Part shown: piece by piece, positions 47,464 through 50,648 of the stretch
How the letters are laid out: every line of letters starts with the position of its first letter
How positions within the stretch are numbered: the first letter of the stretch is position 1
Assembly: GCF_008806955.1 (NCBI RefSeq)
Contig: NZ_CP031727.1
Span: 1,998,001-2,062,000 of the forward strand
Source: Cellvibrio sp. KY-YJ-3
GTDB lineage: Bacteria; Pseudomonadota; Gammaproteobacteria; Pseudomonadales; Cellvibrionaceae
Reading direction: 5' to 3'
Length of the DNA stretch: 64,000 nucleotides
Notes under the pieces: generated by a model
The model's input: only the letters and a program-made list of their open reading frames with translations
Database searches by the model: none
What the model was told of the DNA's origin: nothing
Translations under genes and position numbers: made by a program

Positions 47464-47640
47464 CTAACTATACAACCTTCTTGAAGCTGCTTGTAAATCG
47501 CCGCGACTCATCTCGTATTTAAGCAGATTAAGCAATTCGCTGACTTGAGGGGTGACTTGGGGGGTAGGTAAATGGCTAGATGATTCAATCGTGTTCAGAA
47601 TCATCTGTGGCATAAACTCAATAAACGGCGCAGAGTCAAC
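47464..47640 (-). pseudogene. C-terminal remnant of a Fic-family protein
   Basis: A 58-codon frame with no start codon of its own translates to a segment containing VDSAPFIEFMPQMILNTIE and PTPQVTPQVSELLNLLKYEM, then SRGDLQAA. The DS-x-PFIEFM and TPQVTPQV-x-x-LL pattern is what I know from the C-terminal region of Fic/DOC AMPylase-type proteins. The catalytic HPFxxGNG region is absent. Its 5' end joins the truncated HigA reading frame in another phase at about 47640, so it is a deletion scar. Confidence 0.65.
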
Positions 47641-47884
47641 TCTTGCGAATCATCGGCTCCAGATTCTTTACAGTTAAACCTTTGCGTTCCATTTCGAATT
47701 TAATTGCTTCGACTGGATCATGTAGATCCATGGGAAAGTATTTTGCTTCGTAGGCTTCTATCAGCGTAACCAGCACTCCCAGCTTTTCGCCTTCGGGCGA
47801 ATCAAGCTCTGCCATCATTAGGCTCTCAATTTCTTTTAACGCCGCGCGATAATCGGCATCAGTTTTTATCGGTTTGATGTTCAT
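47636..47884 (-). pseudogene. Truncated HigA-like antitoxin
   Basis: 82 residues. MNIKPIKTDADYRAALKEIE, LVTLIEAYEAKYFPMD and the HTH beginning AIKFEMERKGLTVKNLEPMI match HigA antitoxins, but the protein ends in IRKS where a full HigA continues with the recognition helix and ~35 more residues. The DNA-binding domain is therefore cut in half. The upstream side is also abnormal: integrase-derived sequence on the other strand begins at its start codon, and no higB toxin gene is next to it. Probably a non-functional remnant. Confidence 0.65.
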
Positions 47885-48459
47885 CGTTTTGGTGAGATTG
47901 ATTACAGCAATCCGCTGGATGGTGTGAAAATGATTAAGCTGGACGAAAGGGAGCTGTCTTGGCTAACTGTAGAGTAAATAAAAATGCTGCTTGAAACAAT
48001 GGATAAATTTTCCTTGAATCCGCATGTTAAATTGATAACCAAAATCAGTCTTGCTACAGGGGCACGATGGGGTGAGGTAGAGGGGTGACTCTTGATAAAC
48101 TACAAGATGGAAAATTGACCTTCACAAAAACCAAGAGTAGAAAAAATCGCTCTATCCCTGTGTCGCCTGAGCTATTTGCCGAAGTAAGCCAGCACCTTAA
48201 AAAGTATGGCTGTTTTTCTAATTCTATTAATGCTTTTGGTAGGGCGCTTAGGGTTGCAAAAATTGAATTGCCCAAAGGACAGTCAGCGCATGTGCTTCGT
48301 CATTCCTTTGCTAGCCACTTCGTGATGAATGGCGGTGATATTCTATCGCTTCAGAAAATATTGGGGCATTCAACTATAAACATGACAATGAGATATGCTC
48401 ATTTATCGTCGGATCATTTGGCTTCCGCATTGGTTAAAAATCCAATTTCTTTTATTTGA
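47882..48459 (+). pseudogene. Tyrosine integrase remnant with one nonsense codon and one frameshift
   Basis: From 47882 the frame reads RFGEIDYSNPLDGVKMIKLD, ERELSWLTVE, then TAA (47975-47977) where a Gln codon is expected, IKMLLETMDKFSLNPHVKLI, TKISLATGARWGEVE, then a one-base deletion near 48083-48085, and continues as VTLDKLQDGKLTFTKTKSRK to the catalytic block HVLRHSFASHF, LGHSTINMTMRYAHL. The R-H-x-x-R-H-Y residues of phage/island integrases are present apart from the disruptions. The N-terminal domain is missing. Most similar in pattern to integrases of P2-like phages and genomic islands. Confidence 0.8.
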
Positions 48460-49399
48460 TCAAGCTCCATAATGATCTAGCTTTATCTTTATATCTGCTT
48501 TCAATAACAGAAAGTGAATTGATTCTGCCCAGTGTTCTATCAATTAATTTTTCGGGAGGGCTTAGCTTTCCGCTAAATCCTTTGAGAAGTTCAATGTCCT
48601 GATATAAATTTTTGTGTTGTTCGTTTTTTGCGAGTGCTGTCCCATTTCTTATAACTACCCCTGTAATTACTTTTACGCTTCCCTTTGGATAAAGAATTGA
48701 CTTTTTAGGGTGCATAATGTGTCCGTGTCGAGTAATTATTTTTTTAACTGTATTGACAAAAATTTTATTCACATTGCTTCCAGTAAAAGTAATGTCATCC
48801 ACATAGAGCGTCATTGTGACATTATGTTGAATGGATAAGTTTTGTAGCTCCCTAAACATCTTCTCATTCGCCCAGAAAGACATAGGCATACTTATTCTGC
48901 TTCCTGTCGGGATGTGACCATTGCATGTGCAAAGTTTGGCAAGAAGGTCGGCAACGTCAGGTTCGCATTTCATGACGCCATAGAAAAAAGAAAACACTTT
49001 TTCAATTGGTGTTGAAGGGAAAAATGATTTTATATCTGTTGTGAAAGTGTTTTCGTTTGCTAAATGAATCTTTGCGTTCGTGACATGCGATCGTCTTTTT
49101 GTTCCTGAATGTATGAAATCAGGAGATTCTATTCTGCAAAGAAGGCTAGCAATTCTGGATTGGTAAATGTCCAGGTTTTTATTTGGTTTTTCAATTGTTC
49201 TGGGTTTAAGTGGATTTTTGTTATCTATAAAAATAGAGTAATCCCCGATTGCCTTTGTTAAGTCACTGATGGTAACAGAGGCTTGGGATAAGATTGAGAG
49301 AAGTTTTTTCTTTGATGTTATTTTGTATAACGACGAATCTTTTAGGGCGTATGATTTTCCTTTTCTAATTATTTTAAGCTTGCTGTGTTTTATTTTCAT
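48452..49399 (-). CDS. Retron-type reverse transcriptase
   Basis: 315 residues, the usual retron RT size. Motifs: NAKIH at 108-112 (the NAxxH element of retron region X), FTTDIKSFFPST at 119-130 (first catalytic Asp122), HIPTGSRISMPMSFW, MTLYVDDITFTG with YVDD at 199-202, HPKKSIL, and VITG at 244-247, matching the retron VTG element. No maturase, Cas1 or other fused domain. It makes msDNA by copying part of a structured RNA primed from an internal 2'-OH. The start overlaps the HTH gene by 26 bases, so the two are coupled. Its 3' end overlaps the integrase remnant by 8 bases, and the gene looks intact. Confidence 0.9.
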   Translation of the reverse strand: MKIKHSKLKIIRKGKSYALKDSSLYKITSKKKLLSILSQASVTISDLTKAIGDYSIFIDNKNPLKPRTIEKPNKNLDIYQSRIASLLCRIESPDFIHSGTKRRSHVTNAKIHLANENTFTTDIKSFFPSTPIEKVFSFFYGVMKCEPDVADLLAKLCTCNGHIPTGSRISMPMSFWANEKMFRELQNLSIQHNVTMTLYVDDITFTGSNVNKIFVNTVKKIITRHGHIMHPKKSILYPKGSVKVITGVVIRNGTALAKNEQHKNLYQDIELLKGFSGKLSPPEKLIDRTLGRINSLSVIESRYKDKARSLWSLIK

Positions 49400-49685
49400 C
49401 TTTGTCGGATAGCCATTCCATTACGGTCAAAATTTTATCGGTAACAGCTAGTCTAAATTTTTTAGCTGTCTTTCCTTCTTTATCGATATTTTCAGAAAAG
49501 AATACCAATGATGAAACCGGTATTTCAAAAATTTTTGAATATCTTTCGAGTAGATCAAAAGATACTGGTTTTTTTCCTGATTCAATTTCAGATAGATAAG
49601 ATTTTGATATATCCAACTGTTCAGCAAGTTCAGCTTGCTTGACTTTATGAAATTGTCTTATTACTTTCAGCGCTTTATTAATCAT
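49374..49685 (-). CDS. XRE-family HTH protein of the retron operon
   Basis: 103 residues from ATG 49685 (GAGG seven bases upstream); the frame to 49715 has no ribosome site. The Cro/CI-type helix-turn-helix reads KVKQAELAEQLDISKSYLSE, then IESGKKPVSFDLLERYSKIF. A ~40-residue C-terminal helix follows (TAKKFRLAVTDKILTVMEWL). It could repress the operon or serve as the retron accessory protein; several retron classes carry HTH proteins, and from memory the class called type VI does. It overlaps the RT gene. Confidence 0.85.
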   Translation of the reverse strand: MINKALKVIRQFHKVKQAELAEQLDISKSYLSEIESGKKPVSFDLLERYSKIFEIPVSSLVFFSENIDKEGKTAKKFRLAVTDKILTVMEWLSDKDENKTQQA

Positions 49686-49689
49686 TTTT

Positions 49690-49727
49690 AACCTCAAAAA
49701 AAGCAAGGGGAACACCTAGAGTGTTCA
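49690..49727 (-). promoter_or_regulatory. Palindrome and T-run between the small gene and the HTH gene
   Basis: The minus strand has GAACAC-TCTAG-GTGTTC (6-bp arms, 49710-49726 region) followed six bases later by seven T residues, then the HTH gene's ribosome site. It could be a weak terminator/attenuator that lowers HTH-RT expression, or an operator for the HTH protein itself. Confidence 0.45.
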
Positions 49728-49877
49728 CTCCTCGTCGGAAAAAAATTGGATTACCCTCCATACCAACTTACCAAAGAGTATTGCCCACTTGATAAGTTTC
49801 CACTTTAGGTTCTTTCTCTTTTTCTTCTCGGAGCTATCTCCGGGTGCCTGTTGATCTTGATCAGAAGTACTATTCAT
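49725..49877 (-). CDS. 50-residue basic amphipathic protein of the retron operon
   Basis: A short gene with AAAGG eight bases before its ATG. Residues 1-16 are polar and acidic-neutral (MNSTSDQDQQAPGDSS), then EKKKRKN, then a basic amphipathic or membrane-active helix (LKWKLIKWAILFGKLVWRVI) and the end QFFSDEE. The ribosome site lies in the right arm of the long hairpin of the candidate retron RNA, and the ATG lies in its candidate a2 repeat. It has no recognisable family. Its composition is that of small membrane-acting toxins, so it is a candidate effector; that is inference. Confidence 0.65.
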   Translation of the reverse strand: MNSTSDQDQQAPGDSSEKKKRKNLKWKLIKWAILFGKLVWRVIQFFSDEE

Positions 49878-50028
49878 ACGCGTTACCTTTAATTACTACT
49901 CTGCGGAATTGCCTAGTAGCTTCGCCTAATTAAAGGTGGAGAGTGATCAACATAAACCCCTTGTTTTCCACCCGTAGGGATTCGCCCCTACGGGTGTGTA
50001 CTCGCTGCCATGCTGGATAAGCGTATAA
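49874..50028 (-). ncRNA. Candidate retron msr-msd RNA
   Basis: Read on the minus strand: a candidate a1 repeat TTATACGC (50021-50028); AGC triplets (CCAGC, GCAGCGAG) that could hold the branching G; a perfect 11-bp hairpin CACCCGTAGGG/CCCTACGGGTG with a 6-base loop (49969-49996); and a long hairpin (49885-49937) whose outer arms ACCTTTAATTA/TAATTAAAGGT continue through a 7-base bulge into CTACT/AGTAG. A candidate a2, GCGTATGA (49874-49881), pairs with a1 over 8 bases with one G-U pair. The order a1, msr hairpin, msd hairpin, a2 is that of retron RNAs. The exact ends are estimates. Confidence 0.65.
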
Positions 50029-50031
50029 GGC

Positions 50032-50133
50032 CTAACGCTGCTTGGGCGGGTAATTGGTAGAGAGCAAGCTCTCCGCGAGTTCCAATACATCAAACTCAGG
50101 CGATGGCGAAATTTTCTCTCCTTTACTGACCAT
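50032..50133 (-). CDS. Possible 33-residue leader peptide or gene remnant
   Basis: ATG 50133 opens MVSKGEKISPSPEFDVLELA and ends in PPKQR, four bases before the candidate retron RNA. The frame is open back to 50274 but that part runs through the tmRNA terminator. A TTGACA-17 bp-TACCTT promoter places transcription start close to the ATG, so any translation would be leaderless. It may be a gene fragment left by integration at ssrA. No family recognised. Confidence 0.3.
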   Translation of the reverse strand: MVSKGEKISPSPEFDVLELAESLLSTNYPPKQR

Positions 50134-50139
50134 GAAACT

Positions 50140-50168
50140 AAGGTAGATTAGGGGGAGTTTTCTGTCAA
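50140..50168 (-). promoter_or_regulatory. Candidate promoter of the retron unit
   Basis: On the minus strand a perfect -35 TTGACA (50163-50168) is followed after 17 bases by TACCTT (50140-50145). It lies after the tmRNA terminator and about 110 bases upstream of the candidate retron RNA, with no terminator in between, so it could drive the whole RNA-small protein-HTH-RT unit. Confidence 0.5.
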
Positions 50169-50253
50169 TGAAAAGTTCGCTATTTGCGAACAAATCTGAT
50201 GCCGCATGTGGGCAGAATGTAGGCACAAAAAAACTTTTGAAAGAGCATTCAAT

Positions 50254-50286
50254 AAAAAACCCCAACATAATCAATATGTTGGGGTT
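50254..50286 (-). terminator. tmRNA terminator
   Basis: On the minus strand AACCCCAACATA pairs with TATGTTGGGGTT around a 5-base loop and runs into a T-rich tract, starting just past the encoded CCA end of ssrA. Confidence 0.88.
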
Positions 50287-50293
50287 CGTTATG

Positions 50294-50648
50294 TGGTGGA
50301 GCCGGGGGGATTTGAACCCCCGTCCGCCAGCACTCCATCCTCGGCTCTACATGTTTAGGTCCGTTTATTAATTTAACGCTTATCAGCCCAACAGGCAGGA
50401 CGAAAAGCGCGATCCTGTAGAGTTTTAGCAGCGCCGCACCAGGCTTACTTTGCTGCGATCCAGTTCTGTATGACGGGCTCTAACGCGGTACTGGCACCTT
50501 GTTACAGACCGTTAGCAGCGATTAAGCTGCTAAAGCGTAAGAATCGTCGTTTGCGACTATTCAAGTACAGCTTTGGATTAACGTGATTGGCTGTCATCAC
50601 GACATGCACCTTGGGCTTTGTTACCAGCGTCGAATCCAAATCGACCCC
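50294..50648 (-). ncRNA. ssrA: tmRNA (transfer-messenger RNA)
   Basis: The 5' end GGGGTCGATTTGGATTCGACG and the 3' end GGGGGTTCAAATCCCCCCGG-CTCCACCA (encoded CCA) form the tRNA-like domain; 5' GGGGTCG pairs with 3' CGGCTCC with wobbles. The resume region TAGTCGCAAACGACGA leads into the tag frame at 50522-50554, which encodes ANDDSYALAA and a stop. About 355 bases, as expected. tmRNA with SmpB rescues stalled ribosomes and tags the nascent protein for proteolysis. Its 3' end is a common integration site; accessory DNA begins directly downstream. Confidence 0.97.

What the first reader, a model, noticed from the sequence alone, without database searches (positions are those of the whole stretch)
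48452..50168. Apparently intact retron next to ssrA: RNA, small protein, HTH and reverse transcriptase
The RT has NAxxH, YVDD and a VTG-like element and no fused domain, which together point to the retron branch of bacterial RTs. Upstream on the same strand are an XRE HTH gene, a 50-residue gene and a structured RNA with a1/a2-like repeats. The arrangement recalls the retron class with HTH accessory proteins (type VI, from memory), one of the less studied classes. The unit sits in a decayed island between integrase and toxin-antitoxin debris, yet all its parts look intact, which suggests selection for function such as phage defence.
Basis: partly seen in the sequence, partly recalled or inferred. 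Interest (0 to 1): 0.88.

Follow-up and report, generated by a model that had tools for sequence, protein, structure and literature searches.

The report
Type VI retron with RNA-controlled peptide
This is an intact bacterial retron (a reverse-transcriptase system of a kind that often defends against phages) whose RNA carries a short tag that can pair either with its own DNA-copied hairpin or with the hairpin hiding the start of a small membrane-type peptide, which suggests that the retron may control that peptide at the RNA level.

Summary
The finding is real: an intact type VI retron (PADLOC RT_VI 311 bits, HTH_VI 127 bits) inserted at the 3' end of ssrA. In order it holds an operator and promoter, the msr-msd RNA, a 50-aa ORF, the HTH gene and the RT. 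Comparison with related loci adds two things. (1) The small ORF belongs to a conserved family (polar, lysine-rich N-terminus, then one amphipathic helix). A profile finds it at E<0.01 in 56 of 79 loci (0 antisense hits). It is the best effector candidate; the PADLOC models matched here are RT and HTH only. (2) A 5-7 nt tag after a1 is complementary both to the msd hairpin loop and to a loop of the hairpin burying the ORF's Shine-Dalgarno; tag and loops change together (0 of 20,000 permutations each, 26 loci). Tags placed by a covariance model in 12 loci gave 35 and 935 of 20,000. Best reading: HTH represses transcription, and the retron RNA/msDNA controls translation of the peptide. Toxicity, phage defence and the direction of the switch are inferred. 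Small auxiliary proteins of type VI retrons were already noted in print; ten paper searches showed no report of the switch.

The parts
50175..50191 (-). operator-like palindrome GTTCGC-AAATA-GCGAAC just upstream of the promoter; probable HTH site
   Evidence: position. TTCGC-N5-GCGAA-like palindrome (up to 1 mismatch) in 32 of 46 loci, against 0.8% of mononucleotide shuffles. Binding by the HTH is inferred.
50140..50168 (-). sigma-70-like promoter: TTGACA (50163-50168), 17-nt spacer, TACCTT (50140-50145)
   Evidence: Read from the sequence; no promoter scan was run.
50116..50121 (-). a1 (GGAGAG); its last G is a possible branch G (inferred)
   Evidence: In the MFE fold; a1:a2 permutation 0/20,000, n=26.
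50105..50110 (-). 5' tag TTCGCC, complementary to both loop motifs
50056..50103 (-). msr hairpins H1 and H2
   Evidence: RNAalifold on 23 loci: 12 pairs, 8 of them with at least one change on both sides.
49969..49996 (-). msd hairpin; its loop holds GGCGAA (49981-49986), motif alpha-1
   Evidence: 5 consensus pairs, all 5 with changes on both sides, in 26 loci. The DNA copy is predicted to fold with TTCGCC at its loop.
49938..49943 (-). a2 (CTCTCC)
49885..49937 (-). hairpin that buries the small ORF's Shine-Dalgarno (AAAGG); its internal loop holds GGCGAA (49921-49926), motif alpha-2
   Evidence: SD stem against shuffles; arm permutation 0/20,000, n=26.
49725..49877 (-). 50-aa small protein: polar N-terminus, KKKRK, then an amphipathic helix; candidate effector
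49374..49685 (-). XRE/HTH protein of type VI retrons (103 aa)
   Evidence: PADLOC HTH_VI 5.5e-38; Pfam HTH_3 8.4e-11.
48452..49399 (-). retron reverse transcriptase, type VI (315 aa)
   Evidence: PADLOC RT_VI 1.5e-93; alignment A1; PDB Ec86 8.4e-16.
50294..50648 (-). ssrA (tmRNA), integration site; same strand as the retron
   Evidence: similarity to a relative with an identical ssrA stops at its 3' end.
47900..48459 (+). decayed tyrosine-integrase remnant

Best explanation
A type VI retron operon: ncRNA, small peptide, HTH, RT. SHOWN by comparison: the four-part order, the RNA elements, the small-protein family, the operator, and a tag that co-varies with two loops. INFERRED: (a) the HTH binds the TTCGC-N5-GCGAA operator and represses the whole operon; (b) the 50-aa peptide, one basic amphipathic helix, is the membrane-active effector; (c) the peptide's start is buried in a hairpin, and the tag just after a1 pairs with the loop of that hairpin (alpha-2) to clamp it, or else with the identical loop of the msd hairpin (alpha-1); (d) reverse transcription removes alpha-1 RNA, which frees the tag, and yields a cDNA loop with the tag's own sequence, so a cell with intact msDNA keeps the peptide off; (e) a phage that damages the msDNA or RT complex, or lifts HTH repression, turns the peptide on and the infected cell stops growing. 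The tag can pair with only one loop at a time within one molecule, so in this reading it is the switch.
For: Type VI. Small ORF: profile hit in 56 of 79 loci at E<0.01 and 69 of 79 at E<1; antisense control 0 and 12; 9 of the 10 loci without a hit show such an ORF by eye. dN/dS 0.00 to 0.61 in all 82 scored pairs with dS>0. Helix 16-49 predicted, residues 31-40 mean pLDDT 92; hydrophobic moment 0.60. SD stem: summed score 945 against at most 655.5 in 60 shuffled sets; arms co-vary, 0/20,000. Tag: 0/5,000 with 46 loci; 0/20,000 for each loop with 26 loci; sharp positional peak, 4.9 and 5.2 against 0.4-3.2 away from the tag; 35 and 935 of 20,000 in 12 loci with the tag placed by a covariance model. 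Operator 32 of 46. Predicted cDNA loop shows TTCGCC.
Against: No experiment: toxicity, msDNA synthesis and defence are not shown. An out-of-sample try with the 5' window placed too far upstream was not significant (2741 and 6258 of 20,000, n=14). The 12 loci include L012, which was in the 26, and three near-identical rows; tag:alpha-2 there is only p about 0.05. The pattern was first seen by eye in the same 48 leaders. L113 has no tag:alpha-2 match of 3 nt or more, and L167, L113 and L086 only 3 nt with alpha-1. Three pairs of small ORFs differ only by non-synonymous changes. 14 of 46 loci lack the operator, among them most of the P2-like enterobacterial group. The helix model has pLDDT about 55 over its first 20 residues.
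Confidence: 0.45

Rival explanations
1. The tag:loop pairings are architecture of the RT's substrate, not a toxin switch. The tag makes a pseudoknot with the msd loop that the RT recognises, and the second copy beside the small ORF is a second template site or a landing place (for instance for template switching between two identical sequences).
For: Both loops carry the same motif (shared-word test 0/5,000 and 0/20,000), the tag lies directly after a1 where retrons prime (recalled), and repeated short motifs serve template jumping in DRT2 (recalled; DRT2 papers seen only as search listings).
Against: The second motif lies beyond a2, outside the expected copied segment, inside a hairpin whose 3' arm contains the Shine-Dalgarno run in 21 of 26 loci.
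Confidence: 0.25
2. The HTH protein is the functional partner (it binds the msDNA and reports damage), and the small peptide is an accessory such as a scaffold or RT partner without toxicity.
For: PADLOC names type VI models for RT and HTH only; a winged-helix protein binds msDNA in the type IX retron Kva2 (PMC13405049, abstract and passages).
Against: HTH loci share an upstream palindrome typical of an autorepressor; the peptide has the build of small membrane-active proteins and its start is under dedicated RNA structure.
Confidence: 0.17
3. The co-varying tag and loops are a protein recognition motif (bound by HTH or RT) present in both orientations, with no base pairing.
For: In the window the motif GGCGAA resembles the operator half-site GCGAA.
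Against: The operator stays TTCGC...GCGAA while the tag and loops change to GTCACC/GGTGAC, GTCGTC/GACGAC or CCTCG/CGAGG. Complementarity kept through change is what pairing predicts.
Confidence: 0.08
4. The locus is a decaying passenger of an integrated element and does nothing now.
For: Integrase and antitoxin remnants around it; no type VI RT found in 20 other genomes of the genus (2 have distant RTs only).
Against: RT, HTH and peptide frames and the RNA helices are intact; near relatives of the RT (97%) and peptide (96%, 80%) exist in sequence collections.
Confidence: 0.05

Closest known systems
Type VI retrons (classification of Mestre et al. 2020, recalled; PADLOC RT_VI and HTH_VI)
   Same: RT and HTH match the type's own models best by a wide margin; same order HTH-RT; RNA upstream.
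   Different: The PADLOC models matched cover RT and HTH only. The conserved small ORF, its buried start and the co-varying tag are features I add for the type from comparison; small auxiliary proteins were already mentioned for it (PMC8541194, passages).
Putative retroelement in Shewanella phage vB_SspS_MuM16-1 and P2-like phages (PMC8541194, passages seen)
   Same: Same RT family (52.9% identity by tblastn), HTH, and a small ORF of this family before the HTH (L169).
   Different: Phage-borne copies; the authors noted short ORFs and a possible link to type VI but no RNA switch in the passages seen.
Type IX retron Kva2 (PMC13405049, abstract and passages seen)
   Same: A DNA-binding-fold protein accompanies RT and msDNA; the effector is held back until a trigger.
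   Different: Its effector is a HEPN RNase sequestered inside a protein-RNA assembly; here the candidate effector is a 50-aa helix with control proposed at translation.
Type I toxin-antitoxin systems with small membrane peptides (recalled)
   Same: Small amphipathic or hydrophobic peptide, start codon hidden in RNA structure, complementary RNA nearby.
   Different: Here the complementary RNA lies in cis, in the msr of a retron, and one of its partners is the reverse-transcribed hairpin. No sequence relation was found: the window's peptide has no Pfam, NCBIfam or PADLOC match.
Retron Ec86 (Eco1)
   Same: RT relative (E 8.4e-16); a1/a2, msr hairpins, msd hairpin.
   Different: Effector there is a nucleoside deoxyribosyltransferase-like protein (recalled); no tag or second loop known to me.

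Membership tests
Retron | RT of the retron branch (NAxxH, YVDD, VTG-like) | tested here: met
   N108-A109-H112 and V200-D201-D202 invariant in 38 RTs; ITG in the window. No RT tree was built.
Retron | upstream ncRNA with a1/a2 inverted repeats, msr hairpins, msd hairpin | tested here: met
Retron | msDNA (branched RNA-DNA) is made | not testable with these tools
   Needs extraction and a gel or sequencing.
Retron | an effector that is harmful when released | not testable with these tools
   Small ORF is the candidate; toxicity untested.
Type VI retron | RT matches the type VI model best | tested here: met
   311.1 bits against 134.0 for the next RT model.
Type VI retron | HTH protein of type VI next to the RT | tested here: met
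   HTH_VI 127.1 bits, residues 1-92 on profile 1-91 of 92.
Type VI retron | published type VI ncRNA covariance model | not tested
   That model is not in the tools; Rfam showed no retron match. A model built here from 23 loci found 15 of 33 other sources at the expected place.
Type VI retron | small auxiliary protein | tested here: met
   phrog_15287 3.3e-6 for the window's ORF.
Type I toxin-antitoxin | toxic peptide with antisense RNA antitoxin | tested here: inconclusive
   Complementary tag found in cis; toxicity and repression untested; no family match.
Anti-phage defence system | protects cells from phage | not testable with these tools
   Only indirect: defence models match; copies sit in phages and plasmids.

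The most novel reading that the evidence does not exclude
Type VI retrons are RNA-level toxin switches: reverse transcription destroys the msd loop that competes for the tag and makes a DNA loop with the tag's own sequence, so msDNA acts as a DNA antisense clamp on the start of a membrane peptide's message, and loss of msDNA during infection turns the peptide on.
Probability: 0.28. Interest if true: 0.92.

Novelty: new variant of a known kind. Interest (0 to 1): 0.7.

Why it matters
Type VI is one of the least studied retron types, and the PADLOC models matched here (RT and HTH) name no effector. A conserved small protein under purifying selection gives one concrete candidate, and the co-varying tag gives a mechanism that can be tested with a few base changes in a reporter. 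In the retron mechanisms I saw in papers, the RT-msDNA complex holds an effector protein. Control of an effector's translation by the retron RNA or msDNA would be a different way for reverse transcription to guard a cell. It would also give annotation tools a missing gene: 4 of the 6 annotated records I viewed do not list the small ORF (L167-L170), one does (L171), and one lists a 130-aa ORF there (L197).

Tried and rejected
Rfam for a retron RNA: only tmRNA. Genome contigs with the single RT: 37 stretches matched a pattern, none a relative; with the alignment A1 it worked. Pfam, NCBIfam and PADLOC for the window's small ORF: nothing, and only sub-threshold chance-level Pfam matches for three of its relatives. 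RNAalifold on the MAFFT alignment of the 3' half found only 5 msd pairs and missed the SD hairpin, whose arms are not aligned, so the SD hairpin was tested by arm permutation. A first out-of-sample tag test used a 5' window ending 110 nt before the msd hairpin, which cuts off the tag in several distant loci; it was not significant (2741 and 6258 of 20,000; the loop1=loop2 test in the same call gave 0/20,000). I then placed the tag with covariance model R1 and repeated it. From the 18 matches the script left out L144, L032 and L029 and the second L058 match, and L040 and L143 gave no msd+SD pair, so 12 rows remained. L016 and L170 were searched but not found by R1. The second attachment site at the far end of the element: no copy in the window; the terminator that follows ssrA in a relative was not found in the window or the own genome. 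Idea rejected: the tag is a second HTH operator (it changes while the operator does not). Not done: RT tree, R-scape, any search of metagenome contigs.

Papers: Mestre et al. 2020 is not held and rests on recall plus how PMC8541194 cites it. I saw passages of PMC8541194, PMC8934634, PMC8987985 and PMC8867640, abstract and passages of PMC13405049, and passages plus section 10 of PMC12548924. The others were seen as search listings only. That no report of the tag/loop switch was found rests on ten searches of a library that lacks most subscription papers.
Full report
What is there. On the minus strand, directly after ssrA (50294-50648), lie an operator-like palindrome (50175-50191), a promoter (TTGACA 50163-50168, TACCTT 50140-50145), a structured RNA (about 50121-49885), a 50-aa ORF (49877-49725), an HTH gene (49685-49374) and an RT gene (49399-48452). 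The RT matches PADLOC RT_VI at 1.5e-93 (311 bits; next RT model 134 bits) and the HTH matches HTH_VI at 5.5e-38 (127 bits; next 36 bits). By sequence, the only solved relatives at E<=1e-3 are retron Ec86 and Ec67 RTs (5 distinct sequences). The Pfam RVT_1 score is just under its cut-off (29.4 against 29.6), and no NCBIfam model reaches its cut-off. N108-A109-H112 and V200-D201-D202 are invariant among 38 aligned RTs.

Setting. A congener with an identical ssrA (G375, 100% over 355 bases) has other sequence after the ssrA 3' end; its similarity to the window stops there. Another congener (G387) shares the first 43 bases that follow ssrA in the window. This fits insertion of an element at ssrA. 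No second copy of the ssrA end lies in the window. Next to the retron are a tyrosine-integrase remnant with stops in its frame and a truncated ORF like PD-Lambda-2_B. G+C is 0.373 for the retron and 0.499 for the window. Of 20 other genomes of the genus, 2 have any match to the RT, both distant (26-29% identity). Over the class, 17 of 369 genomes match RT_VI at E<=1e-50. Related RTs also occur in 36 viral-contig loci, 61 plasmid records, 10 of them with at least 80% of the query covered, and 17 phage records.

Small protein. I collected loci by several routes. Of 153 with an RT hit, 137 remained after exact duplicates and three copies of the window were dropped. 79 were examined: an HTH was found and the RT scored at least 200 bits, plus L017. 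An iterative profile of the small ORF hits at E<0.01 in 56 of 79 and at E<1 in 69 of 79; on the antisense strand 0 and 12. Two of the 69 (L042, L057) are hits elsewhere, but both loci show a fitting ORF by eye. Of the 10 loci without a hit, 9 show such an ORF by eye; L017, whose HTH is broken, does not. The 79 are not free of near-duplicates. dN/dS was scored for 89 equal-length pairs within nine groups chosen by me; in the 82 with dS>0 it is 0.00 to 0.61, and many pairs share identical ORFs. Three pairs differ only by non-synonymous changes. The window's ORF matches phrog_15287 (3.3e-6) and phrog_5826 (1.5e-5), both of unknown function. A profile search of the large protein set found 7 proteins, among them peptides 96% and 80% identical to the window's. 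AlphaFold gives one helix at residues 16-49; mean pLDDT is 72, 92 for residues 31-40 and 55 for residues 1-20. The strongest 18-residue hydrophobic moment is 0.60. PMC8541194 (passages) already notes short ORFs before the regulator in two phages and says that type VI retrons have small auxiliary proteins, so the gene as such is not new.

RNA. A common plan appears in 48 leaders: a1, tag, H1, H2, a variable part, the msd hairpin, a2, then a hairpin over the Shine-Dalgarno of the small ORF. H1 and H2: 12 consensus pairs in 23 loci, 8 of them with changes on both sides. Msd hairpin: 5 consensus pairs, all with changes on both sides. a1:a2: 0 of 20,000 partner permutations, n=26. SD hairpin: summed stem score 945 against at most 655.5 in 60 shuffled sets, and 32 of 48 loci at or above 95% of their own shuffles; arms permuted between loci 0 of 20,000, with the Shine-Dalgarno run in the 3' arm of 21 of 26. 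A covariance model of a1-tag-H1-H2 built from 23 loci was run on 33 other sources; of 18 matches at E<=10, 15 lie at the expected place, one per source, and 3 elsewhere.

Tag and loops. Just after a1 lies a short tag whose reverse complement occurs in the msd loop (alpha-1) and again in a loop of the SD hairpin (alpha-2). In the window: TTCGCC, and GGCGAA twice. Elsewhere the set changes together: GTCACC with GGTGAC (L008, L009, L084), TTCACC with GGTGAA (L015), GTCGTC with GACGAC (L082, L085), CCTCG with CGAGG (L016, L170; alpha-1 there only GAGG), TTCGCT with AGCGAA (L026); CTCTCG with CGAGAG (L039), TTCCC with GGGAA (L058). With 46 loci and windows found without using the motif, 0 of 5,000 permutations reach the observed value. 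With 26 of these loci and alignment-placed windows, 0 of 20,000 for either loop; a match of at least 4 nt occurs in 23 of 26 (alpha-1) and 25 of 26 (alpha-2). In the 11 loci whose alpha-2 lacks GGCGA, tag:alpha-2 matches are 6-7 nt in all 11. A scan along the 5' part peaks only at the tag (4.9 and 5.2 nt; 0.4-3.2 elsewhere). A first test on 14 further loci with a poorly placed window failed (2741 and 6258 of 20,000). With model-placed tags in 12 loci (11 of them outside the 26; three near-identical) it gives 35 and 935 of 20,000. The pattern was seen by eye before it was tested, and permutation does not correct for relatedness.

Operator. TTCGC-N5-GCGAA with at most one mismatch lies upstream in 32 of 46 loci against 0.8% of mononucleotide shuffles; 14 lack it, among them most of the P2-like enterobacterial group. 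It stays the same while tag and loops change, so the tag is not an operator. I infer that the HTH represses its own operon.

How it may work. See the best explanation. The tag is likely to remain in the msr next to the branch point, whereas alpha-1 is copied and its RNA lost; the cDNA hairpin is predicted to show TTCGCC at its loop. That makes msDNA synthesis a natural input to the switch. Whether pairing with alpha-2 closes or opens the start site is not known; I chose closing because alpha-2 is in a loop and its pairing need not break the SD stem.

Verdict. The locus is a member of type VI by the features tested. What would be new is the RNA-level control of the small protein, a property of the type. 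I scored it as a new variant of a known kind with interest 0.7, because the co-variation is solid but the function is untested.

Noticed in passing
window 47636-47884 (-): 82-aa ORF matching the first 82 of 402 positions of PADLOC PD-Lambda-2_B (1.2e-21): a truncated antitoxin-like remnant.
   Followed up: partly
window 47900-48459 (+): Decayed tyrosine integrase: C-terminal part open (48085-48459), earlier part in another frame with stops.
   Followed up: partly
window 50251-50293 and L183: The 43 bases after ssrA, including a terminator-like hairpin, are the same in the window and in congener G387: probably the end of a related ssrA-targeting element.
   Followed up: partly
L070, L074, L079, L087, L088, L089: More distant RT loci with an HTH also carry an ORF before the HTH (74-168 aa as listed), of different sequence: the small-protein slot may be wider than type VI.
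   Followed up: no
L018, L019 (Xenorhabdus hominickii): RT reading frame is in two pieces at both places of this genome.
   Followed up: no
L017 (Endozoicomonas arenosclerae): RT intact but the HTH match is partial and no small ORF of the family is seen: a natural loss of both.
   Followed up: partly
L169, L171, L197 and plasmid loci L167, L168: Type VI-like retrons ride in Mu-like and P2-like phages and in Aeromonas plasmids.
   Followed up: partly
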